Source: Natrarchaeobius halalkaliphilus
GTDB taxonomy: Archaea > Halobacteriota > Halobacteria > Halobacteriales > Natrialbaceae
DNA: 64,000 nt
Assembly: GCF_003841485.1 (NCBI RefSeq)
Contig: NZ_REFY01000002.1
Coordinates: 1-64,000 of the forward strand
Direction: 5' to 3'
Numbering within the stretch: position 1 is the stretch's first letter; every line of letters starts with the position of its first letter. The translations under genes were made by a program, and so were the position numbers. Of this stretch, positions 22,296 to 34,701 are shown piece by piece. The notes beneath the pieces are model-generated. The model was given only the letters and a program-made list of their open reading frames with translations, had not been told where the DNA came from and did no database searches.

Positions 22296-23549
22296 TTATT
22301 TCGGAGGGGTCGGGTCGGCTTCGACCTCGATTCGGTCGTGGATGTGTCCCTCGCGCGCTCTCAGGTGGCGCGGGTCGCGGTCGTTGTGGACGGCGAGTAC
22401 CTCCGCGACGATACTGTGTGCGATCTGGTACGGTGAGCCGCCACCGAGGTCTAATCCGATCGGCGTATAGAGCGACGAACGATCGTCGTCGGTAATCGTT
22501 CTTTCCTCGGCGTCGAACTCCTCGATCATCTCCTCGAATCGTTCGTGGGGTCCCATCAATCCGACGTACGGAACGCCGGCATCGAGTAGCGTCTCGACGG
22601 CCAGTCGATCGTCGACGAAGTTGTGAGTCATGACGACGGCATAGGTCCGATCGTCGAGGCCCATCTCGAGGTCGTCCTCGATCGTACCGGGCGACGTCGT
22701 CACGGTCCGATCGGCGTCCGGGAACCGCTCAGCGAGGTCGACCGCGCCGCGAAATCCGACGACGGTCACCCGAAAGTCGTTCTTGCTCGCGAGTTCGGTC
22801 ACCGGGCCGACGTCGTGACCGCTGCCGAAGACGACGAGTTCGGCCGGAGCGGCGATGCCGTCGACGAACACTTCGAGCCTCGTCCCGTCGACCTCGAGGT
22901 CGATGACGTTCGCCCGTCCGCGACCGGCGAGTTCGGACGCCGGCTCAGAGAGTACGTCGATCGGCCAGTCCGCTTCGGTCGTCTCCCCGCCATCGCCACT
23001 CGCTCCGTCGTCGTCCGACGGCGTCGAAAGGCGATCCTCACCGGGGTGATAGTACGCACGGTCGCCGTACGCAAGCGGCGAATCGGTATCGCTGGCGTCG
23101 ACATCCTCACCGTGGACGCTCAACACCGTCAACACGGCGACGTCCCGACCCTCGGTGAACGCGTCGGTTGCCGAGCGATACGAGGGCGTCAACGGCTCGA
23201 GCAGAACCTCGATGATGCCGTTACAACCGACGCCTAGCCCCCAGACGTCGTCGTCATCGTCCATCAGATCGTAGGTGACGAGTTCGGGCTGACCTGTCCC
23301 GCGGACGCTCTCGGCTGCACGCAGGATATCGTCTTCGAGACAACCGGCCGTGATGCTTCCGACGCCGTCGCCCGCGTCGTCGAGGAGCATCTTCGCACCC
23401 GGTCTGCGGTAGGCGTTACCGTCGACGTCGACGATGGTTGCGAGGACGTCCGAACCATCGGCCTCGAGACGCTGGTGTACGCGCTGTACGACTTCCGTTT
23501 CGGGAACGCTCCAGTTACGCTGGGTCTGTGTCTTCTGTGATTCGGTCAT
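22296..23549 (-). CDS. XdhC/CoxI family maturation protein
   Basis: 417 aa. The N-terminal XdhC_CoxI part has the glycine/cysteine block GSITAGCLEDDILRAAE and GLGVGCNGIIEVLLEP. An acidic spacer and a C-terminal Rossmann fold (VVFGSGHDVGPVTELAS) follow, ending in DLGGGSPYQIAHSIVAEVLA. XdhC proteins bind molybdenum cofactor and help sulfurate it before insertion. It is the last gene of the cox cluster and overlaps the preceding gene by 4 nt. Confidence 0.9.
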   Translation of the reverse strand: MTESQKTQTQRNWSVPETEVVQRVHQRLEADGSDVLATIVDVDGNAYRRPGAKMLLDDAGDGVGSITAGCLEDDILRAAESVRGTGQPELVTYDLMDDDDDVWGLGVGCNGIIEVLLEPLTPSYRSATDAFTEGRDVAVLTVLSVHGEDVDASDTDSPLAYGDRAYYHPGEDRLSTPSDDDGASGDGGETTEADWPIDVLSEPASELAGRGRANVIDLEVDGTRLEVFVDGIAAPAELVVFGSGHDVGPVTELASKNDFRVTVVGFRGAVDLAERFPDADRTVTTSPGTIEDDLEMGLDDRTYAVVMTHNFVDDRLAVETLLDAGVPYVGLMGPHERFEEMIEEFDAEERTITDDDRSSLYTPIGLDLGGGSPYQIAHSIVAEVLAVHNDRDPRHLRAREGHIHDRIEVEADPTPPK

Positions 23550-24418
23550 GGCTGATCTTTCGTGCTGACGGATTCTAGTTGGATACCGGATGGACGGTCG
23601 GTTGCGGTGTAGACCTTTCGGACGCCCGCATCGTGAAGGCCGGTTCCGCAGGATCCGTCGGAAATCGCTTCGCGAACGCGACCCGGTTCGTCGATGGTGG
23701 CACCCGCGACCACGTCGACGCCCGATGCGAACAGCGGACCGGGGAGGAACGACGCCGTCGCGCCGACGACGACGACGGTCGCCGCATCCGGCGCTGTCTC
23801 GAGGTAGTTCGTTATTCCGTCGTAGACGAACACGGACCCCGTGACGAAGACGACCTCCGAACCCGCCATCGCCCGGGGTGCGTCCGCGGGTTCGAACGCC
23901 GAGACGCGCACGCCGTCGGGTGTCGAGAGGTCGTCGTCGACCGACGTTCGTTCGATGACGCGGACGTCCACGTCTTCGAACTTCCGAAACGCCGGTCGAA
24001 AGAGCCCGACAGTCGTGATCGTCTCGACCGACGGGTCGAGCAACGCCATCGGATCACCCGCCCGCCACTCGAGAAACGGAACCGACAGGGCGTTCACCGT
24101 CGCGACGGCGACGGCTCTCTCGAGCGATCCGACGTTCTCGTCACAGTCGCGGTCGTCCGCCTCGATCGGCTCGAGTAGCTCGTCGACCGTCCGGTTCGAA
24201 CGCGACGATTCCGTACCGTCGAGATCGAGTTCGGTGTTTCGCGGACGGTGTGCGAGCCCTGCGAGCGGGTGATCGTCCGATTCGGAGGAGTCGGATAACT
24301 CCACGAGAACGACCGAGTCACCGACAGTGACGCGGTTACACCTCACGCTTCGTAGCGCATCCCGCGCTCGAAGGCGGTCGGAGACGGTCTCGAGAATGGA
24401 GTCAGTCACTCTTCTCAC
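23546..24418 (-). CDS. DUF364 (putative heavy-metal chelation) protein in the cox cluster
   Basis: 290 aa. An N-terminal DUF4213-like segment (DSILETVSDRLRARDALRS) and a C-terminal Rossmann-like DUF364 domain (VVFVTGSVFVYDGITNYLETAPDAA, TASFLPGPLFASGVDVVAG) are present. DUF364 proteins are proposed to handle metals, often near molybdenum or ABC metal genes. A GTG start at 24418 overlaps the coxE-like stop; a second GTG is 9 nt on. Its 3' end overlaps xdhC by 4 nt, so it is part of the operon. A role in loading the CO dehydrogenase metal site is an inference. Confidence 0.75.
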   Translation of the reverse strand: MRRVTDSILETVSDRLRARDALRSVRCNRVTVGDSVVLVELSDSSESDDHPLAGLAHRPRNTELDLDGTESSRSNRTVDELLEPIEADDRDCDENVGSLERAVAVATVNALSVPFLEWRAGDPMALLDPSVETITTVGLFRPAFRKFEDVDVRVIERTSVDDDLSTPDGVRVSAFEPADAPRAMAGSEVVFVTGSVFVYDGITNYLETAPDAATVVVVGATASFLPGPLFASGVDVVAGATIDEPGRVREAISDGSCGTGLHDAGVRKVYTATDRPSGIQLESVSTKDQP

Positions 24419-25892
24419 CCCCGGATTCGGTCGGACGCCGACGTGGGTCGTACTCGTAGCCGATCGGTCCGTCCAGCCCGCGACGTTCGATCTGTCGGGC
24501 GGCCGACTCGAGGTCGGACGGGGCGACGAATCCGAACAGCGCGTCGACGTACGGAACGCTCGTCGCCATCCCTCGCGAGCGCGGCTCGAACGCAGGCGAA
24601 GCCGCGAGCGGGTTCAACCAGATGAAAGAATCGGCCCGGGATGCGAGCCAGGTGATCTGCGTTTCGAGGAGCTCTTGATCACCGACGTCGAGACCGTCGC
24701 TTACGACGACTACGACGGTCCGCCGATCGACTGCGTTCGGATGACGCCGACGAAGTGAGGCGATCGCAGCTCCGATCCGCGTTCCGCCCCCCCACTCGAC
24801 TTCGGCATCGCGCAGGGTAGCCGCGGGGTCGCCGTCCGCACGGGCGAACTCCGCCGTCGCGTCGACGAGGTCGGTATCGAAGAGAAAGACGCGGGCGTCG
24901 CGCGCACTCTCTTGGAGGTATTCCGCGAAGGTCAACAGCACGCTCCGGTCGATGGTATCGAGGACCGACCCGCTGACGTCGACGAGCAGGCAACACCGAA
25001 GCTCGCTCCGAATCGCCTCCGTCGCTGGGAGTTCGATCGGTGCGCCGCCGGTTCCGAGGCTCGATCTGAGCGCCCGGCGTGCGTCGACGGCCGATCCGGA
25101 CGGTGACGTCCTGCTTCGGCGGCCAGGAAGCGTGGCGAGTGCATCTACGAATCGTCGAATCGATGTCCGTTCTCCTCGCGAAAGCGGATGAATCTCGGCA
25201 TCGACAGGTTGGCTTCCGCCGACGGAACTGTAGCGCCGAACCTCTGACTCTTCGGTTGACGCCGAACGGTCGCCGGACACTTCCCGGCGGTTCGTCGCGA
25301 TCCGGACCGACGGAACCGACTCGTCTTCGTCACCAGAGTTTTCGGCGTCCATCGGCGGCGCGTCGGCATCGTTGAGGAAATCGGCGTCCCGCGGTGACTC
25401 GGATCGATCCTGATCGGGGTCGATCGCACCCTCGTCATCCTCGCCGTCAGGCGACGTCCAATCGTTCGCGGTCGCGATCCGCTCGAGACCTGTCCTGAGC
25501 CGGTGCCAGAACGTCGGAAACGCTGCGTCGAACGCTTCGCGCTCGTCCGCTTCGGTGACGAGCGTCGCCCGGAGTGCGGCGCTTGCGCGTGACTCGTCCG
25601 CCAGACCGATCACGGAGAGCGATCGCGCGGCCTCGAGCGTCCCCGTCGGTGGAACGGCGACACCCTCGCTTCGCAACGCGGACGCGAACCGGACCAGTTC
25701 CGTCAGGACGTGCTGACGCGCGCCGACGAAATCGGGGACGCCGTGATCCGATCGTGATCGGCCGGCTCCGAACCGGGCCACCGCGTCGTCGTCATCGTTC
25801 CGTCTCTCGGTCCGGCTCGTCGAATCCGACGCTATCGATCGCTCGACTCCATCGATCGCTTCTGTCGCGTCGAAATCGCCAGGTGGTGACAT
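24402..25892 (-). CDS. coxE: CoxE-type VWA (MIDAS) protein
   Basis: 496 aa. A helical N-terminus (GARQHVLTELVRFASALRSEG) of the CoxE kind and a long acidic insert precede a C-terminal von Willebrand A domain with an intact MIDAS (LLVDVSGSV, GGGTRIG, VVVVSDGLD). In Oligotropha CoxE works with the AAA ATPase CoxD in maturing the Cu-S-Mo active site. It follows the ATPase gene by 21 nt. Confidence 0.87.
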   Translation of the reverse strand: MSPPGDFDATEAIDGVERSIASDSTSRTERRNDDDDAVARFGAGRSRSDHGVPDFVGARQHVLTELVRFASALRSEGVAVPPTGTLEAARSLSVIGLADESRASAALRATLVTEADEREAFDAAFPTFWHRLRTGLERIATANDWTSPDGEDDEGAIDPDQDRSESPRDADFLNDADAPPMDAENSGDEDESVPSVRIATNRREVSGDRSASTEESEVRRYSSVGGSQPVDAEIHPLSRGERTSIRRFVDALATLPGRRSRTSPSGSAVDARRALRSSLGTGGAPIELPATEAIRSELRCCLLVDVSGSVLDTIDRSVLLTFAEYLQESARDARVFLFDTDLVDATAEFARADGDPAATLRDAEVEWGGGTRIGAAIASLRRRHPNAVDRRTVVVVVSDGLDVGDQELLETQITWLASRADSFIWLNPLAASPAFEPRSRGMATSVPYVDALFGFVAPSDLESAARQIERRGLDGPIGYEYDPRRRPTESGGEKSD

Positions 25893-25913: not shown

Positions 25914-26939
25914 TCACTCCTCGAGTCGACCTCGTGCCGTCGCGGCCGCATCACGAAGCTGCTCGAGGAGGTCGGTGTCTACCCGGTCTACGTCCTCGGC
26001 CTCCTTAAGCAGACAGCCGAGCGTTCGTTCGATTTCGTCGGGTGAAATCGCCTCGGGATCGCCCTCGTCGCCGGAAGCCGACCCATCACCGGCGTCCTGT
26101 CGTAATCTGGCGACCGCACCGGCCCAGTCGAGCGTCTCCGCGACGCCCGGGCGCTTGAGAAACGCCTCTTCGCGAAACCGTTCGACGATGGCACATACTT
26201 CGGCGGCGACGGCGGCGTCGAGCTCGGGAACCTTGCGACGGACGATCTCGTATTCGGTCTCGAACGACGGTGGTTCGACGTGTAAGTACAGACATCGGCG
26301 TTTCAGAGCGTCGCTGAGCCCGCGGGTCCGGTTCGACGTGAGAACGACGATCGGCGGATGTTGGGCGCTGACGGTTCCGAGTTCGGGAATCGACACCTGA
26401 AAGTCGGAGAGCAACTCGAGCAAGAACGCTTCGAACTCCTCGTCCGCTCGATCGATCTCGTCGATGAGCAACACCGGCGGCCGATCGGTTCCGGACCTAA
26501 TCGCGCGCAACAGCGGTCGCTCGAGGAGGAACTCCTCGTCGAACACCGTCCGAGAATCCGACGGTCCGTCCGCGTCGGTCGGCGTCGTCGCATCGACGGC
26601 GGACTCCCCATCGCTGGTGCCGGCGACCGTCCCCTCGTTCGCCTGGACCGCGAGCAGCTGTTTGGTGTAGTTCCACTCGTAGAGTGCGTTCTCTGCGGTC
26701 AGTCCCTCGTAACACTGAAGCCGAATCAGTTCGGCGTCGAACGCCGCCGCGAGAACCTTGCCCAGCTCGGTCTTCCCGCTCCCGGGCGGTCCCTCGACGA
26801 GCAGCGGACGCTCGAGTTGCAACGCGAGATAAACGGTCGTTACCGTCGCGTCGTCAGCGACGTAGTCCCGTTCGTCGAAGCGATCTCGGAGCGACCCCTC
26901 CGAAAGCGACTCGAGCGCGAGGGGTTCGGTCCCGGTCAT
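25914..26939 (-). CDS. coxD: MoxR/CoxD-type AAA+ ATPase
   Basis: 341 aa. Walker A GPPGSGKTELGKVL, Walker B VLLIDEIDRAD, sensor 1 VLTSNRTRGLSD and an arginine-finger region (LKRRCLYLHVEPP) define a MoxR AAA+ protein. An acidic insertion of about 35 residues (TVAGTSDGESAVDA) lies between Walker A and B. The ATG overlaps the upstream gene's TGA by 4 nt. Pairing with a VWA protein and the cox genes identifies it as CoxD. Confidence 0.9.
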   Translation of the reverse strand: MTGTEPLALESLSEGSLRDRFDERDYVADDATVTTVYLALQLERPLLVEGPPGSGKTELGKVLAAAFDAELIRLQCYEGLTAENALYEWNYTKQLLAVQANEGTVAGTSDGESAVDATTPTDADGPSDSRTVFDEEFLLERPLLRAIRSGTDRPPVLLIDEIDRADEEFEAFLLELLSDFQVSIPELGTVSAQHPPIVVLTSNRTRGLSDALKRRCLYLHVEPPSFETEYEIVRRKVPELDAAVAAEVCAIVERFREEAFLKRPGVAETLDWAGAVARLRQDAGDGSASGDEGDPEAISPDEIERTLGCLLKEAEDVDRVDTDLLEQLRDAAATARGRLEE

Positions 26940-28027
26940 GGCGTCGACACCCTGGTCTCGGTCGTCTCGAGGTACGATTCCGGATCCGATCGAAATGCGT
27001 CCGCACAGCCGGGACAACAGAAGTAATACCGTACGTCGTCGTGGTCGACGGTCGCCGGTGCGTCGGATCGGACGACCGTCATGCCACAGACGGGGTCGAT
27101 CGCCGGCTCTCGATCGGCCGAACCGTCGCCCGCCCCGCAGTCCGCGGGCGTGTAGTTCCCCGTTGCACCCCCGACGGTGGCGCGCACGTCGACGATTTCG
27201 GCCAGCAGGCTCGCAGCGATCTCCGCCGGCGTGTAGGCGGCGACGTCGACTCCCGCCGGGTTCGTTACGGCCTCACGAACCGCGCCGGGATCGGTTTCGA
27301 GGACCGTCGCGGCGCGCTCGATCACCTCCTCGGCTCGCGTGTTGCTCGCCACGAGCCCGATATAGAGCGCGTCCGTCATGATTCCCGCCGCGATTCCGCG
27401 GGCGTCGAACTCCCCCATGGAGGCGACGACGACGATCGGTTCCCGATCGATCGCGTCGACGATCGCGTCGGGATCGGTGGACGGTCGAACGGTCGTACCC
27501 GGCGGAACGTCACCGTCGAGCCCGTCGTCACCGCCTCCGCTGACCATCGTGACGTCGAAAGTCAACTCGCTCGCGAGCCGTGCGAGCGAGCGCGCGACCG
27601 GTGAGTCACCGACGATGAGGAGATCCGGTGCGGTGTTGACCGACTCGAGGAACACTTCGAGGACGCCCTCGCTGTGACACGTCATCTGGAACGCCTCGAG
27701 CCCATCGCGGTCGATCCGTTCCGGATCCGGGGCGATACCGAGAAGCTGTGGTTCGCCGGATTCGAGCACCGATCGGGCTTCGGTCGTGACGATCGACTGG
27801 GCGCACGATGCGCCACCGATCCATCCGCGAAGTTCGCCGTCAGCGGTGATCACCGCCCGATCGCCCACGTTCGCGGACACCGGGGGCTCCCGGCGAACAA
27901 CCGTCGCTCTGACGTACGGTTCGCGTCGCTCGACCAGGCGGTCCTCGATGGACTCGAGTCCGTCCTCGCGTTCGCCCTCGGCTGCGTCTGTCGCGGATTC
28001 GTCGTGTGGTGTCGTGTCGTGAGTCAT
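26936..28027 (-). CDS. coxF: CoxF/XdhC-type maturation protein with C-terminal YHS domain
   Basis: 363 aa. The XdhC_CoxI N-terminal part contains GWIGGASCAQSIVTTEA, and a central Rossmann fold (LLIVGDSPVARSLARLA) ends near NPAGVDVAAYTPAEIAASLL. From about residue 310 a YHS/TRASH metal-binding domain is fused: DPVCGMTV ... YYFCCPGCADAF. YHS domains bind copper or other soft metals in transport proteins. The fusion suggests direct metal delivery to the CO dehydrogenase site (inference). The gene begins 41 nt after coxL and overlaps coxD by 4 nt. Confidence 0.87.
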   Translation of the reverse strand: MTHDTTPHDESATDAAEGEREDGLESIEDRLVERREPYVRATVVRREPPVSANVGDRAVITADGELRGWIGGASCAQSIVTTEARSVLESGEPQLLGIAPDPERIDRDGLEAFQMTCHSEGVLEVFLESVNTAPDLLIVGDSPVARSLARLASELTFDVTMVSGGGDDGLDGDVPPGTTVRPSTDPDAIVDAIDREPIVVVASMGEFDARGIAAGIMTDALYIGLVASNTRAEEVIERAATVLETDPGAVREAVTNPAGVDVAAYTPAEIAASLLAEIVDVRATVGGATGNYTPADCGAGDGSADREPAIDPVCGMTVVRSDAPATVDHDDVRYYFCCPGCADAFRSDPESYLETTETRVSTP

Positions 28028-28068: not shown

Positions 28069-30570
28069 TCAGTCGTCGGCGGCGGCGTCCTCGTTCGATT
28101 CGTCTTCGAAGGCGAACTCGACGTTCTGTGCTGGTTGCTGTGCGAGCCCCGATTCCTTGAGCGTTTCCCAGACGACGTCGGGCGTCATCGGCATCTCGAC
28201 GTGGCTGACGCCGGCGTGGGCCATCGCGTCGACGACGGCGTTGACGATGGCCGGCGGCGAACCGACCGTCGGGGATTCACCGACCCCTTTCGCACCGATC
28301 GGGTGGTGTGGTGATGGCGTGACGGTGTGGCCCGTCTCGAACTCGGGAATCTCCATCGCGGTCGGAAGCAGGTAGTTCATGAAGTCGCCGCCGGTTACGT
28401 TGCCGTTGTCGTCGAAGGTGACGTGTTCCAACATTGCGGTTCCGATCCCCTGAGCGAGACCGCCGTGGATCTGGCCCTCGATGATCATCGGGTTGATACG
28501 GTTTCCGCAGTCGTCGACGGCGACGAACTTCTCGAAGTCGACCTCGCCGGTTTCGCGGTCGATCTCGACGATGACGACGTACGAGCCGAACGGATACGTC
28601 ATCTCCGGCGGATCGTAGTAGTTGACCGCCTCGAGACCTGGCTCCTCGCCGGCCGGCTTGTTCATGTACGCACCGGCCGCGATCTCCGTGATCGTGATCG
28701 ATCGCTCGGGCGCGCCGACGACGTGGAACTCGCCGCTCTCGCGGTCCCAGGTTACGTCGTCCTCGGCGGCCTCGAGTTCGTTCGCCGCGATCGATTTGGC
28801 CTTGTCTCGGACCTTTCGAGAGGCAACGGCGGTCGCCGCACCGGCGACGGGCGTACTCCGCGAGCCGTACGTTCCCAGCCCGTAGGGATCGGTATCCGTG
28901 TCGCCGTGTTCGACGGTGATATCCTCGACGTCCATGCCGAGTTCCTCCGCGACGATCTGTGCGAACGTCGTCTCGTGGCCCTGTCCCTGAGTCTGGACGC
29001 CAACGCGTACCGTGGCCTTCCCCGTCGGATGGACGCGGATGTCCGCGGAGTCGAACATCTCGACGCCGGCGATGTCACAGGACTTTCCGGGACCGGCTCC
29101 GACGACCTCCGTGAACGAGGAGATGCCGATCCCCAGAAGCTTCTTCTCGTCGGCTTCGATCCGACGGCGCTGTTCTTCGCGGTAGGCCTCGTAATCGGCC
29201 ATCTCGAGGGCCTTGTCCAGGGCCGTCTCGTAGTCGCCGGAGTCGTAGTTCCAGCCCGTCGGACTCTCGTAGGGGAACTGCTCTGGCTGGATGAAGTTCT
29301 TCCGGCGAACCTCTGCCGGATCCATCTCGAGTTCGTCCGCGAGCACTTTCACCATCCGCTCGATCAGGTAGACCGCCTCCGTGACCCGGAACGAACAGCG
29401 GTAGGCGACGCCGCCGGGCGCGGAGTTCGTATACGCCGCCGTGAGCGAGCCGTAGGCGGTATCGATGTCGTACGACCCCGTGAAGATATTGAAGAATCCC
29501 GCGGGGAACTTCGACGGCTGGGCAACGGCGTTGTACGCACCGTGGTCTGCGAGTACGTCGGTTCGAACCGCCAGGATCTCGCCGTCCTCGGTGGCGGCGA
29601 TCTCGCCTTTCATGTCGTAGTCTCGAGCGAACCCGGTCGACTGGATGTTCTCCGACCGCTCTTCGACCCACTTCACCGGCTGTTCCAGGACGTACGACGC
29701 GGCAGCCGCGACGACGTAGCCGGGGTAGATCGGCACCTTGTTCCCGAAGCCACCCCCGACGTCGGGGCTGACGATCCGGATTTTGTGTTCCGGAATCCCC
29801 GAGACCTGCGCGAACAGCGTTCGGTGAATGTGCGGTGCCTGCGAGGTCATGTGGACCGTTAGCTTGTCCTTGCCAGGATCGTAGTCACCCACAGCACCGC
29901 AGGTTTCGATCGGTGCCGGGTGCAGCCGCTGGTAGAGCATCTCCTCTTCGACCGTGACGGGCGCGTTCGCGAACGCGTCGGCGGTGGCCTCCTCGTCGCC
30001 GGTCTCCCAGTCGAGACAGTGATTGTCCTCTTTTCCCTCGATGTCGTCACGGATAACCGGGGCGTCGTCTTCGAGCGCGGCCGCGGCGTCGACGACCGGA
30101 TCGAGTACGTCGTACTCGACTTCGACCTTTTCGGCCCCGTCCTTGGCGGCGTAGCGGTCCTCCGCGATGACCGCCGCGACCTCCTGGGACTGGAACTTCA
30201 CCTTGTCGTTGACGAGGACGTCCTGCGTGTCGTCCATCAACGTCGGCATGGTCGCCAGACCGTACTCGAGTAAATCGTCCGCGGTCAACACGGCGACGAC
30301 GCTCTCGAGCGCCATCGCGCGCGAGCCGTCGATATCCTCGATTCGAGCGTGAGCGTGGGGGCTCCGGACGAGTTCGCAGTGGAGCATTCCCGGCCTCTTG
30401 ACGTCGTCGACGTAGTTCCCTCGCCCGGTGATGAACCGCTGATCTTCCTTCCGGGAGACCGATTCACCCATGCCGCCGCGGCCGTGTCCGCAGTGTTTCT
30501 CCGGCTGTGGTCCGTCGTCTTCCGGGTGTTGATACTCCGTGTCCGCCGAGTTTTCGTGATCACTGCTCAT
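28069..30570 (-). CDS. coxL: Aerobic carbon monoxide dehydrogenase, large (Mo) subunit, form I
   Basis: 833 aa from [13 protein letters not shown]. This is a molybdenum hydroxylase catalytic subunit. The active-site loop at 29386-29406 reads AYRCSFR, the form I signature whose Cys carries the copper of the [CuSMoO2] centre; form II enzymes have AYRGAGR. The catalytic Glu is in [14 protein letters not shown]. It oxidises CO to CO2 and passes electrons via CoxS and CoxM to quinone. A frame continues upstream, but the ATG overlaps the coxS stop by 4 nt and fits homologues. The N-terminus has an acidic/His-rich extension ([10 protein letters not shown]). Confidence 0.95.
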
Positions 30571-31211
30571 GATGACCCTCCGTCGTCGTGATCGCCAGAA
30601 CCAACTCCCGGACCGCCACAGCAGTTCTCGAGGCCGCAGTCGATGCTTTTCCCCTCGCTCCCGGTTGCTCCGAGGCTCGACGAATTCGTCGAATCGATCG
30701 GCGTCCCGCCGTCGGCGGCCGCACGCGACTCGAGTTCGTCGGCCGCGTACTCGATCGATCGAACGATGTTCTGGTAGCCGGTACACCGACAGAGGTTGCC
30801 GCTGATCGCCTCGCGAATTTCGTCCTCGTCGGGATCGGGGTTCTCGTCCAGGAGCGCTTTGCCCGCAATGATCATGCCCGGCGTACAGTACCCACACTGG
30901 AGCCCGTGTTCCTCGTGGAAGCCTTCCTGAAGTGGGTGTAATTCGCCGGCTGCAGCGGGTAACTCCTCCATCCCTTCGACGGTGAGGATCTCGCTTCCAT
31001 CGGCCTGGACGGCGAAGGCGAGACAGGATTTGATCGGTTCGCCGTCGACGAGGACGGTACACGCCCCGCAGTTGCCCGTATCACAGCCGATGTGCGTTCC
31101 AGTCAGATCCAGGTTCTCGCGGAGGGCGTGGACGAGCAATCGCCTGGGCTCGACCTCGATCATCCGTTCCGTTCCGTTGACCGTCAGCGTGAGTTCTCGT
31201 TCGTCGGTCAT
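30567..31211 (-). CDS. coxS: Carbon monoxide dehydrogenase, small 2Fe-2S subunit
   Basis: 214 aa. Two [2Fe-2S] sites: plant-ferredoxin type ([13 protein letters not shown] ... C) and the helical CGYCTPGM ... CRCTGYQNI. The normal subunit ends near residue 165. Here an extra Ser/Gly tail contains a cysteine cluster ([10 protein letters not shown]) that is not part of either cluster and is unusual. Overlaps coxL by 4 nt. Confidence 0.94.
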
Positions 31212-32095
31212 GGTGACACCGTCCGTTTGACGACTCCGGCGCGCTCGGCTGCGTCACCGAGCGCCCGCTGTGTGAGTACGTCGATCATGCGTTCTTTGTA
31301 GGACGCATCGCCGTGTTCGTCCGATTCGGGGTTCGACTCTTCCGCGGCGAGTTCACCGGCCTCCTCGAAGAGGGCCGAACTCGGACGCTCGCCCTCGAGC
31401 CGGTCTTCGGCGTCGCGTGCACGAGCGTTCGTGATGTCTACCGCGGTCATTCCGATCCCTGCCGTCTCGATTCGCCCGTCCTCGTCGAAGACGAGCCGCG
31501 TGGCGACGCCGGCCATCGCGTAGTCTCCCGTCTTGCGTTTGAGTTTGTGGTAGGCACTCCCCTCGCGAGCGTCGGGCGTGGGGACCCGAACCTCGGTGAC
31601 GAGCTCGCTCTCCTCGAGGGTCGTATCGTACGGCAACAGGAAGAACTCGTCGGCGGGAATCACTCGCTCGCCGTCGGGACCCTGTGCGACGACCGCTCCC
31701 TCGTGGGCCAGGAGAACGCTTCCCCAGTCGCCTTTCGGATCGGCCTGTGTGATCGAGCCGACGACGGTGCCGCGGTTGCGGATCTGCGGGTCCGCGACCA
31801 GCGGTGCGGTATCTGCAAAGCTCCCGTAGCTCTCTGCGATCACGTCGGCGTCTGCAACGTCGGCGTGGCGCGCGAGCGCACCGATCCTGAGAAAGCCGGC
31901 TTCCTCGCGGAGATAGTCGAGTGCGTCGATACCGTTGATGTCGATAACCGTCTCCGGGCGGGCCAGCCGAAACCGGAGCATCGGAACCAGGCTCTGTCCT
32001 CCCGCCAGGATAGTCGGCCGCTCGAGGCTTTCGAGCAGGCTGACCGCTTCGTCGGTCGTCGACGGTTCGTGGTGTTCGAAGGGTGCAGCTTTCAT
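31208..32095 (-). CDS. coxM: Carbon monoxide dehydrogenase, FAD subunit
   Basis: 295 aa from [16 protein letters not shown]-binding motifs are [15 protein letters not shown] near residue 33 and [10 protein letters not shown] near 105, close to the AGGHS/TIGG pair of Oligotropha CoxM. C-terminal [17 protein letters not shown] is conserved. It overlaps coxG upstream and coxS downstream by 4 nt each, so coxG-M-S-L is one coupled unit. Confidence 0.93.
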
Positions 32096-32691
32096 AACAT
32101 GTTGCGGAGTCTGTCGGTCACGCCGGAGTCGGTTTCCTCGTCGACGTCCGTCATCTGCTGTTCGATACTCGAAAAGAAGTTGTTCACGATCTTGGTGGCG
32201 ACGGGCTGGATGACCCGGGAACCAAGCTGGGCGATCCGTCCCGAGATGTCGGCTTCGGTCCACCACTCGATGCGAGAACCATCGCCGTCCTCGAGTTCGT
32301 GGATTCGCATGCCCGAACTCATGCTGAAGCTACTGCTGCTCGCGTCACCACTGCCGGATGCGATCATCTCGAACGTTTCGTCGTCGCGCTCGTCGATCGT
32401 CACCGTCGTCTCGAAGCGGGGCTTGACGCTGCCGACGCCGACTTGCATCAGTGCCGCATACGTCCCCCCTTCCTCGAACGCCCGAGCCGCAACGACCTCC
32501 GCATCCGCCTCCGGGAGCGTCTCAAGATCCTCGTCGGGCTCGTACTCGTCGAAATTGAAGTCGTCGTCCATCGGAGCGATGTACCGACACCCCTTCAGGG
32601 AGTTTCGAACCGCGACCGGATCCGAGAGAACGATCCACGCCTTTTCGGGTGGGACATTCTCGAGGTCGAACTCGCCGTCGAACTCCATCAT
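32092..32691 (-). CDS. coxG: CoxG (SRPBCC domain) CO dehydrogenase accessory protein
   Basis: 199 aa (two ATGs at the start, 32691 and 32688). SRPBCC fold of the CoxG family: FDGEFDLENVPPEKAWIVLSD, LKGCRYIAP and a C-terminal GSRVIQPVATKIVNNFF helix. Bacterial CoxG has been reported to carry menaquinone and recruit CODH to the membrane. Here the chain ends about 25 residues after the SRPBCC helix, with no hydrophobic anchor. It is first in the operon. Confidence 0.88.
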   Translation of the reverse strand: MMEFDGEFDLENVPPEKAWIVLSDPVAVRNSLKGCRYIAPMDDDFNFDEYEPDEDLETLPEADAEVVAARAFEEGGTYAALMQVGVGSVKPRFETTVTIDERDDETFEMIASGSGDASSSSFSMSSGMRIHELEDGDGSRIEWWTEADISGRIAQLGSRVIQPVATKIVNNFFSSIEQQMTDVDEETDSGVTDRLRNML

Positions 32692-33529: not shown

Positions 33530-33615
33530 TCATGCGGATTGCTGTAACTGTTTACCGGAGCGACCGGACACCGTCTCGCGGTCGCTCCGGAAATGACTCA
33601 CAGCAGTCCGTATCA
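33530..33615 (-). repeat. 86-bp stop-codon palindrome, copy 4
   Basis: Outer arm differs from copies 1 and 3 at matched positions on both sides (GCGGATTGCTGT / ACAGCAGTCCGTAT), keeping the pairing. Inner stem CCGGAGCGACCG / CGGTCGCTCCGG. Its minus-strand first bases TGA are the stop of the TrpD2-type gene. Confidence 0.9.
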
Positions 33616-34701
33616 GAACTGCTGTAGTTCCTCGAGAACCGCACGGGCGCTGCCGTCGGCAATGGCGTCGCGCGCTCGCTCGAGGCCGTCCTCGAGACTG
33701 TCGACGTCCTGGCGGGCGTACATTCGGAACGCGCCGTTGAGTGCGATCGCATCCGCGAAGTGGTCGTCGCGCTCGCCGGCCAGCACGTCCGTCGTAATCG
33801 CGGCCGAGTCCGCTGTCACGTCCTCGACGGCGAGATCGTCGCTTTCCATCTCCATGCCGTACGTTCCGGTCTCGATCTCGTAATCGTCGAAGGACTCCGA
33901 ACCACCCTCCCCGCGTCCGTCCCACTCTGCTACCTTCGTGTATCCCGGTCGAACGTCGTCGTACCCTTCCATTCCCTGGAAGAAGATGGCTCGAGAGAAC
34001 GATAGTTCGGCGCTCTCTTTGAGCAGCTCGGTCATCTTCTTTGCGAACGCCAGATGGTAGAACGAGCCGAGGTGAACGTCGGCGTTCGCCGGATTCGCGA
34101 CGGTCTCGACGGTGTTGACGAACACCCGAACGCCCATCTGATCGCGCCGATCGGAGAGATCGTCGATACCGGGATTGAACGCGGGCTGATAGTAGAACCC
34201 GAAGCCGGTTTCGTCGACCATCTCGGCGCTTTCGGTCGGCTCGAGTTCCGTCCGCACGTCGAGATCGTCGAGCACGTGTTTGTACGCCGTCGCCTTCTGG
34301 GTCGGGACGCGATCCCCCGAGTGGACCACGACCGGGGTCCCCGCGGCGGCAGCGACGACGCCGGCACCGACGCCGAGAACGGCCGAGGTGTGTTTGCCGT
34401 CGTAGTTGGCACCACAGTCGACGGGATCGCAGTCGGGTTCGCCAGTGACGACCGATTCCTCGCGCATGACGTCGGTGTAGGCCGCGAGCTCTTCGGGCGT
34501 GTTTCGCTTCCATCGGTTCGCAAGCCAGAACGCACCGAGCGTCGTCTCGTCCGGCTCACCCGCGAGAATTCGCTGAAAGGCCTCGCGAGCCTGTTCGCGC
34601 GTCATGTCGTCGGCGGATTTGTGCCCGGATCCGACGACCTCCGTCATCAGCCGTTTCAACGGCCACTCACCGAACTCCTGGGTTGCCTGAGCCATACCCA
34701 T
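33613..34701 (-). CDS. Anthranilate phosphoribosyltransferase-family protein (TrpD2-like)
   Basis: 362 aa. The glycosyltransferase family 3 N-terminal helical domain (MTREQAREAFQRILAGEPDETTLGAF) is followed by a catalytic part with DPVDCGANYDGKHTSAVLG and VVVHSGDRVPTQKATAYKHVL. TrpD proper has GTGGD; here the phosphate loop is diverged (CGANYDGK). It is therefore a paralogue whose substrate may not be anthranilate. No trp genes are nearby. Confidence 0.78.
   Translation of the reverse strand: MGMAQATQEFGEWPLKRLMTEVVGSGHKSADDMTREQAREAFQRILAGEPDETTLGAFWLANRWKRNTPEELAAYTDVMREESVVTGEPDCDPVDCGANYDGKHTSAVLGVGAGVVAAAAGTPVVVHSGDRVPTQKATAYKHVLDDLDVRTELEPTESAEMVDETGFGFYYQPAFNPGIDDLSDRRDQMGVRVFVNTVETVANPANADVHLGSFYHLAFAKKMTELLKESAELSFSRAIFFQGMEGYDDVRPGYTKVAEWDGRGEGGSESFDDYEIETGTYGMEMESDDLAVEDVTADSAAITTDVLAGERDDHFADAIALNGAFRMYARQDVDSLEDGLERARDAIADGSARAVLEELQQF

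What the first reader, a model, noticed from the sequence alone, without database searches (positions are those of the whole stretch)
26936..27045. YHS metal-binding domain fused to the CoxF/XdhC maturation protein
The last ~50 residues (DPVCGM ... YYFCCPGC) form a YHS domain, found in copper and other soft-metal proteins. The CODH active site needs copper bridged to molybdenum and the source of that copper is poorly understood. A fusion with the protein that handles the Mo cofactor is a natural copper-insertion device.
Basis: inference. Interest (0 to 1): 0.7.

Follow-up and report, generated by a model that had tools for sequence, protein, structure and literature searches.

The report
Copper-type domain on CODH chaperone CoxF
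A small metal-binding (YHS) domain sits at the end of CoxF, the protein that puts copper into the CO-oxidising enzyme of this salt-loving archaeon; it turns out to be an ancient, near-universal part of CoxF in copper-containing CO dehydrogenase clusters, lost in the one bacterial lineage where copper insertion was studied, so it is a concrete, untested candidate for the copper-loading site.

Summary
Confirmed and extended. The gene at 26936-28027 (-) encodes a 363-aa XdhC-family protein with a genuine C-terminal YHS domain (residues 310-355, nt 26963-27100; Pfam E 1.7e-11). It lies between form I coxL (AYRCSFR) and coxD and falls in one clade with O. carboxidovorans CoxF, whose mutant makes CODH with Mo and S but no Cu (PMC4240915).

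The fusion is not peculiar to this cluster. In 139 XdhC-family genes sampled without regard to YHS (Actinomycetota, Chloroflexota, Halobacteria), 19 carry YHS. All are CoxF-type (CxSxG); 17 are adjacent to form I coxL and the other two cannot be judged. None of 51 XdhC genes nearest a non-form-I hydroxylase, and none of 16 CoxI-type paralogues in form I clusters, has it. SAR324 repeats this. The metal ligands D-x2-C...C-x3-C are 19/19 conserved.

On a tree YHS was gained once at the base of CoxF and lost three times, once in Alphaproteobacteria, which includes the model organism. No open-access paper found links YHS with CoxF or XdhC.

Most likely it is a mobile Cu(I)-binding arm that loads CoxF or hands Cu to CODH. 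Metal identity and transfer are inferred. The fusion is inherited, so its association with form I is one evolutionary event.

The parts
26936..28027 (-). coxF: XdhC-family CODH maturation protein with C-terminal YHS domain, 363 aa
   Evidence: Pfam hits; clade with O. carboxidovorans CoxF; Foldseek match of the model to XdhC structures 2we8 and 3on5
26963..27100 (-). YHS domain, residues 310-355; ligand set D311, C314, C337, C341
   Evidence: Pfam PF04945 E 1.7e-11; only YHS in the genome; ligands 19/19 conserved in the unbiased set; fold like phenol-hydroxylase YHS and ribosomal L24e
27119..27166 (-). disordered linker (residues 288-303) between XdhC core and YHS
   Evidence: pLDDT <50; linkers are Ala/Pro/acidic, median 18 aa, longer in haloarchaea
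27665..27685 (-). CoxF signature M115-T-C117-H-S119-E-G121; aligns with the Cu motif MCPSHGTM proposed for O. carboxidovorans CoxF
   Evidence: C117, S119, G121 and C75 invariant in 52 CoxF; absent from CoxI/XdhC paralogues; motif proposal PMC4240915
28069..30591 (-). coxL, form I Mo-Cu CODH large subunit (AYRCSFR loop)
   Evidence: TIGR02416 1239 bits, cut-off 991; best PDB match 8uem CoxL; AYRCSFR at residue 396
30567..31211 (-). coxS, 2Fe-2S subunit with extra Cys-rich C-terminal tail CGLENCCGG (30612-30638)
   Evidence: Pfam; tail conserved in haloarchaeal form I CoxS
31208..32095 (-). coxM, FAD subunit
   Evidence: Pfam
32092..32691 (-). coxG
   Evidence: Pfam COXG
25914..26939 (-). coxD, MoxR-type AAA+ ATPase; start overlaps the coxF stop (ATGA)
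   Evidence: Pfam AAA_5; sequence tcat at 26936-26939
24402..25892 (-). coxE, VWA protein
   Evidence: Pfam VWA_CoxE E 2.1e-41
23546..24418 (-). DUF364/DUF4213 protein ('putative heavy-metal chelation'); constant in haloarchaeal cox clusters, role unknown
   Evidence: Pfam; present in 12 of 12 other haloarchaeal form I clusters examined
22296..23549 (-). second XdhC-family protein (CoxI-type), no YHS, no CxSxG: within-cluster control
   Evidence: Pfam

Best explanation
The gene encodes CoxF, the copper-insertion factor of form I Mo-Cu CODH, in its full ancestral form: an XdhC core (which meets the Mo site of folded apo-CODH) plus a flexible linker plus a YHS domain. The YHS domain most likely binds Cu(I) through D311/C314/C337/C341 and acts as a tethered loading arm: it takes Cu from the cytosolic supply and passes it to the CoxF core (C75 and the CxSxG site at C117) or straight to the Mo-SH of apo-CODH, with CoxD and CoxE assisting. 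SHOWN HERE: domain, predicted fold, ligand conservation, exclusive link with CoxF and form I CODH in the samples taken, single gain and few losses. SHOWN BY OTHERS: coxF is needed for Cu but not for Mo or S in O. carboxidovorans; a mycobacterial YHS-bearing cyclase responds specifically to Cu. INFERRED: that this YHS binds Cu, the relay, and the direction of transfer.
For: YHS Pfam hit and only YHS in the genome. Unbiased sample: 19 YHS among 139 XdhC genes, all CoxF-type; 17 next to AY[RA]CSFR coxL, the other 2 at a contig end or beside a truncated coxL; 0/51 nearest non-form-I hydroxylases; 0/16 CoxI-type in the same clusters. YHS-selected set: 64 of 80 beside AYxCSFR, 0 beside another type; most of the other 16 have a cut or missing coxL and one reads TYRCSFR. 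SAR324: 10/10 CoxF-type have YHS, 0/18 other XdhC. Nicotine-plasmid coxDE-linked XdhC beside a Cu-free ketone dehydrogenase has neither CxSxG nor YHS. Ligands 19/19 conserved, 104-109 of 109 overall. One gain, three losses. coxF mutant CODH: Cu 0.043, Mo 1.85, S 1.40 (PMC4240915). M. phlei cyclase is activated specifically by Cu through its YHS, proposed ligands D-x2-C/C-x3-C (PMC4626032). Several of the closest non-CoxF relatives of the domain in the plasmid collection are on heavy-metal P-type ATPases (H44, H45, H50).
Against: No metal binding or transfer was measured. Alphaproteobacterial CoxF (including the studied one) inserts Cu without YHS, one haloarchaeon (L203) and Nonomuraea (L039) have lost it, and Deinococcus L036 keeps only part of the ligands. 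The form I link is inherited from a single origin, so it is weaker than the counts suggest. Ligand conservation fits Zn or another soft metal equally well. In the coxF mutant CoxE is also missing, so the Cu defect is not cleanly assigned to CoxF.
Confidence: 0.7

Rival explanations
1. The YHS domain is a structural zinc (or redox) module that stabilises CoxF or docks it on CoxD, CoxE or apo-CODH, without carrying copper.
For: YHS/TRASH folds include metal sites with no transport role (the fold matches ribosomal L24e) and metal-free ones (diiron hydroxylases, PMC4626032); loss in Alphaproteobacteria is tolerated.
Against: Docking partners CoxD, CoxE and XdhC also exist in Cu-free systems (pAO1, form II), yet YHS is absent there. 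A flexible disordered linker suits a mobile arm better than a rigid structural part.
Confidence: 0.14
2. The YHS domain is a copper sensor: Cu binding switches CoxF on, so that Cu (or Mo-site maturation) is delivered only when copper is available, as in the M. phlei cyclase.
For: Precedent of C-terminal YHS acting as a Cu-specific switch on a catalytic domain (PMC4626032); dispensability in one lineage fits a regulator.
Against: A poorly conserved, disordered linker makes allosteric coupling less likely; no second output domain on CoxF.
Confidence: 0.1
3. The YHS cysteines serve sulfur handling (persulfide relay for Mo sulfuration) rather than copper.
For: XdhC proteins stabilise sulfurated Moco (discussed in PMC4240915).
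Against: The coxF mutant CODH still carries near-normal sulfane sulfur; XdhC proteins of sulfurated XDH-type enzymes lack YHS.
Confidence: 0.04
4. The YHS is a passenger kept by descent with no role in CODH maturation.
For: Single origin; tolerated losses.
Against: All four ligands are kept across most of the phyla sampled while the whole protein has diverged to about 35% identity.
Confidence: 0.02

Closest known systems
CoxF of Oligotropha/Afipia carboxidovorans OM5 (PMC4240915)
   Same: Same clade by tree, same XdhC core, same CxSxG motif and GG-x-C, form I cox cluster with coxD and coxE; needed for Cu in CODH
   Different: 280 aa, no YHS domain (lost in Alphaproteobacteria); gene order M-S-L-D-E-F-G instead of M-S-L-F-D-E
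CoxF-YHS proteins of Thermomicrobium roseum, Mycobacterium, Streptomyces, Acidimicrobiia and others (where annotated, only 'XdhC family protein')
   Same: Same architecture, same ligands, same neighbour coxL
   Different: About 31-42% identical to the window protein; shorter linkers; several lack a neighbouring coxD/coxE
YHS domain of M. phlei adenylyl cyclase and of heavy-metal P-type ATPases
   Same: D-x2-C...C-x3-C ligand pattern, appended to another protein, Cu link
   Different: Sensor or transport setting, other partner domains
CoxI / XdhC (window 22296-23549; 2we8, 3on5)
   Same: XdhC_CoxI + XdhC_C fold
   Different: No YHS, no CxSxG; general Mo-cofactor chaperone family, found with Cu-free hydroxylases too

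Membership tests
CoxF (Cu-insertion factor of form I CODH) | XdhC_CoxI + XdhC_C domains | tested here: met
   Pfam; Foldseek to 2we8/3on5
CoxF (Cu-insertion factor of form I CODH) | falls in one clade with O. carboxidovorans CoxF, apart from CoxI/XdhC | tested here: met
   SH-aLRT 99; 89
CoxF (Cu-insertion factor of form I CODH) | in a cluster with form I coxL, coxD and coxE | tested here: met
CoxF (Cu-insertion factor of form I CODH) | mutant yields Mo- and S-containing, Cu-free CODH | not testable with these tools
   known only for O. carboxidovorans
YHS domain (PF04945) | profile match above the curated cut-off | tested here: met
   44.3 bits vs 30.3
YHS domain (PF04945) | four metal ligands D/C-x2-C ... 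C-x3-C | tested here: met
   D311, C314, C337, C341; 19/19 conserved
YHS domain (PF04945) | YHS/TRASH fold | tested here: met
   model pLDDT 88; best Foldseek matches 2inp YHS (TM 0.60) and L24e, but E-values only 0.03 and weaker for this small domain
Copper chaperone | binds Cu(I) and transfers it to a target | not testable with these tools
Form I Mo-Cu CODH (target enzyme) | AYxCSFR active-site loop with the Cu-binding Cys | tested here: met
   AYRCSFR in window coxL

The most novel reading that the evidence does not exclude
The fusion of a YHS domain to an XdhC protein, made once at the root of CoxF, was part of the step that turned a Cu-free Mo hydroxylase into the Mo-Cu CODH: CoxF works by a two-site relay (YHS arm to the C75/CxSxG core to Mo-SH), and the model organism on which the field's maturation scheme rests belongs to a lineage that lost the arm and must load Cu by another route.
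Probability: 0.4. Interest if true: 0.78.

Novelty: new variant of a known kind. Interest (0 to 1): 0.63.

Why it matters
How the Mo-Cu enzyme that lets aerobes oxidise CO (including atmospheric CO) gets its copper is open; the published scheme rests on an alphaproteobacterial CoxF with a guessed Cu motif and a phytate route. This analysis points to a discrete, conserved, separately folding domain with a Cu precedent as the likely loading site in most of the CO oxidisers sampled (mycobacteria, streptomycetes, Chloroflexota, haloarchaea), offers a reason why it was missed, narrows the proposed core Cu motif to CxSxG plus GG-x-C, and makes the question testable by point mutants. It also gives a marker (XdhC + CxSxG, usually + YHS) that separates true Cu-CODH clusters from form II clusters.

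Tried and rejected
Haloarchaeal CoxS tails (CGxENCCGG) as a second Cu site: rejected as Cu-specific, because small subunits of Cu-free haloarchaeal hydroxylases also carry various Cys-rich tails. DUF364 as a Cu partner: present in all haloarchaeal form I clusters examined, but DUF364-xdhC2 also occurs without coxL nearby in G003 and G024, so no special link. Histidine-rich or CCGG linkers between XdhC and YHS: seen in a few species only (L007/L209, L008, L033), not systematic. Separate YHS gene replacing the domain in Alphaproteobacteria: none within the 9-19 kb around nine cox clusters; the rest of those genomes was not searched. Frameshifted YHS behind Nonomuraea CoxF: none found. Independent second fusion in Nitrososphaerales L091 (XdhC with C-x-G-G instead of CxSxG): the wider tree puts it inside the CoxF clade (support 89), so not counted as independent. 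Literature: no open-access paper holds YHS with CoxF, or YHS domain with XdhC; the two that hold YHS domain with molybd- are, by title and abstract, selenoprotein reviews and were not read.

Full report
Observation. The reverse-strand ORF 28027..26936 translates to 363 aa. Pfam finds XdhC_CoxI (32-96), XdhC_C (136-278) and YHS (310-355, E 1.7e-11, 44.3 bits against a cut-off of 30.3). The cluster reads coxG-coxM-coxS-coxL-coxF(YHS)-coxD-coxE-DUF364-xdhC2; the coxF stop overlaps the coxD start (ATGA). CoxL carries AYRCSFR, passes TIGR02416 by about 250 bits and matches the CoxL structure 8uem best, so this is a form I, Cu-type CODH. The YHS on CoxF is the only YHS domain found in the 3.5-Mb genome.

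Structure. AlphaFold2 on 52 CoxF-YHS sequences gives a confident XdhC core (pLDDT mostly above 90; Foldseek to the XdhC structures 2we8 and 3on5), a disordered linker (288-303) and a confident YHS domain. The isolated YHS model resembles the YHS of phenol hydroxylase (2inp, TM 0.60) and ribosomal L24e, at weak E-values because the domain is small.

Distribution, biased set. A genome-collection scan with a CoxF-YHS alignment returned 80 loci (the cap; 545 candidates confirmed) from Actinomycetota, Chloroflexota, Verrucomicrobiota, SAR324, Gemmatimonadota, Eremiobacterota, Thermoplasmata, Nitrososphaerales and Halobacteria. The nearest large subunit carries AYxCSFR in 64; 10 could not be classed (mostly cut at a contig end; one is TYRCSFR), 6 have none on the contig; none is of another type.

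Distribution, unbiased set. Of 139 genes, 19 carry YHS, all with the CoxF signature CxSxG. Seventeen adjoin form I coxL; one sits beside a truncated coxL and one at a contig end. None of 51 genes nearest a non-form-I large subunit (AYRGAGR form II, AMRGYG, AYRGFG, AFRGFG and the like), none of 41 with no large subunit in reach and none of 16 CoxI-type paralogues inside form I clusters has YHS (Fisher p 1e-8, which ignores shared descent). CoxF-type without YHS: L203 (true loss) and L149 (cut by the contig end). SAR324 loci chosen with a YHS-less CoxF as query: 10 of 10 CoxF-type have YHS, 0 of 18 other XdhC; one form I cluster there (L272) has no CoxF beside it. A useful negative control is pAO1, where coxD-, coxE- and XdhC-like genes serve a Cu-free ketone dehydrogenase: no CxSxG and no YHS.

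Evolution. A tree of the XdhC core only (YHS columns left out) puts all CoxF together (SH-aLRT 99) and needs three changes of YHS state among them: losses in Alphaproteobacteria (nine loci, eight genera, O. carboxidovorans among them), in Nonomuraea and in haloarchaeon G010. A wider tree with Cu-free XdhC sisters needs four: one gain at the base of CoxF, three losses. These are quick-search trees with SH-aLRT support only. Burkholderiales keep YHS (L035, L037); Deinococcus L036 has a decayed one. The association with form I CODH is therefore old and inherited; its weight comes from long retention of the ligands, not from many independent fusions.

Ligands. D311, C314, C337 and C341 are conserved in 19/19 unbiased and 104, 108, 108 and 109 of 109 sequences; C338 is only about 60%. 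This is the pattern proposed for Cu in the M. phlei cyclase YHS, whose enzyme responds to Cu and not to Zn, Fe, Cr, Co or Ni (PMC4626032). In the core, C75 and C117-x-S-x-G are invariant in 52 CoxF. The O. carboxidovorans motif MCPSHGTM, proposed as a Cu site, aligns with C117-x-S-x-G, but its Met, Pro, His and Thr are not conserved.

Mechanism. In O. carboxidovorans, CODH from the coxF mutant has Mo 1.85 and S 1.40 but Cu 0.043 per enzyme (wild type 1.5-1.6), so CoxF acts at the copper step; CoxE is lost in that mutant too. With a mobile soft-metal domain attached to exactly this protein and to no other XdhC sampled, a Cu-loading arm is the simplest reading. That Cu is the metal, that it moves from YHS to the core or to Mo-SH, and that CoxD/CoxE assist, is inferred. 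That CoxF works without YHS in Alphaproteobacteria suggests that the arm helps loading and is not the insertion chemistry itself.

Novelty. NCBIfam has no matching equivalog and records call these proteins 'XdhC family protein'. No open-access paper pairs YHS with CoxF or XdhC; subscription papers could not be checked. I class it as a new variant of a known kind: CoxF and its Cu role are known; its YHS domain as a general, ancestral feature appears not to be.

Noticed in passing
30612-30638 (coxS C-terminus); L033, L085, L105, L202-L209: Haloarchaeal form I CoxS has an extra tail with CGxENCCGG (11 other loci, a variant in L102); small subunits of Cu-free haloarchaeal Mo hydroxylases carry different Cys-rich tails (e.g. 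GCCGGGCDE, CSRTDCGCMEG). Function unknown.
   Followed up: partly
23546-24418: A DUF364/DUF4213 'heavy-metal chelation' gene is in all 12 other haloarchaeal form I cox clusters examined, always between coxE and xdhC2; in G024 (L251) coxD-coxE-DUF364-xdhC2 stands without coxMSL and coxF in the 19.5 kb read.
   Followed up: partly
L045:9968-11161: A Chloroflexota CoxF with two YHS domains in tandem.
   Followed up: no
L007/L209 CoxF linker: Histidine-rich linker (HGGHDHDDHSGHDHSDGGGHDHGDDGH) between XdhC and YHS in one haloarchaeon.
   Followed up: no
L036:8971-10029 (Deinococcus sp. AJ005): Decayed YHS: DPVCGM has become SPVDGE and FCC has become FTC, yet coxL is still AYRCSFR.
   Followed up: no
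L091:9860-10939 (Nitrososphaerales): CoxF-YHS with C-x-G-G instead of CxSxG, in a locus with a CoxL that reads TYRCSFR: an archaeal variant of the form I loop.
   Followed up: partly
L035:3779-6223 (Caballeronia): CoxL with AYRCSFM instead of AYRCSFR in the cluster of a CoxF-YHS.
   Followed up: no
33613-34701: A glycosyl-transferase-family-3 (thymidine/anthranilate phosphoribosyltransferase-like) gene lies upstream of coxG on the same strand.
   Followed up: no
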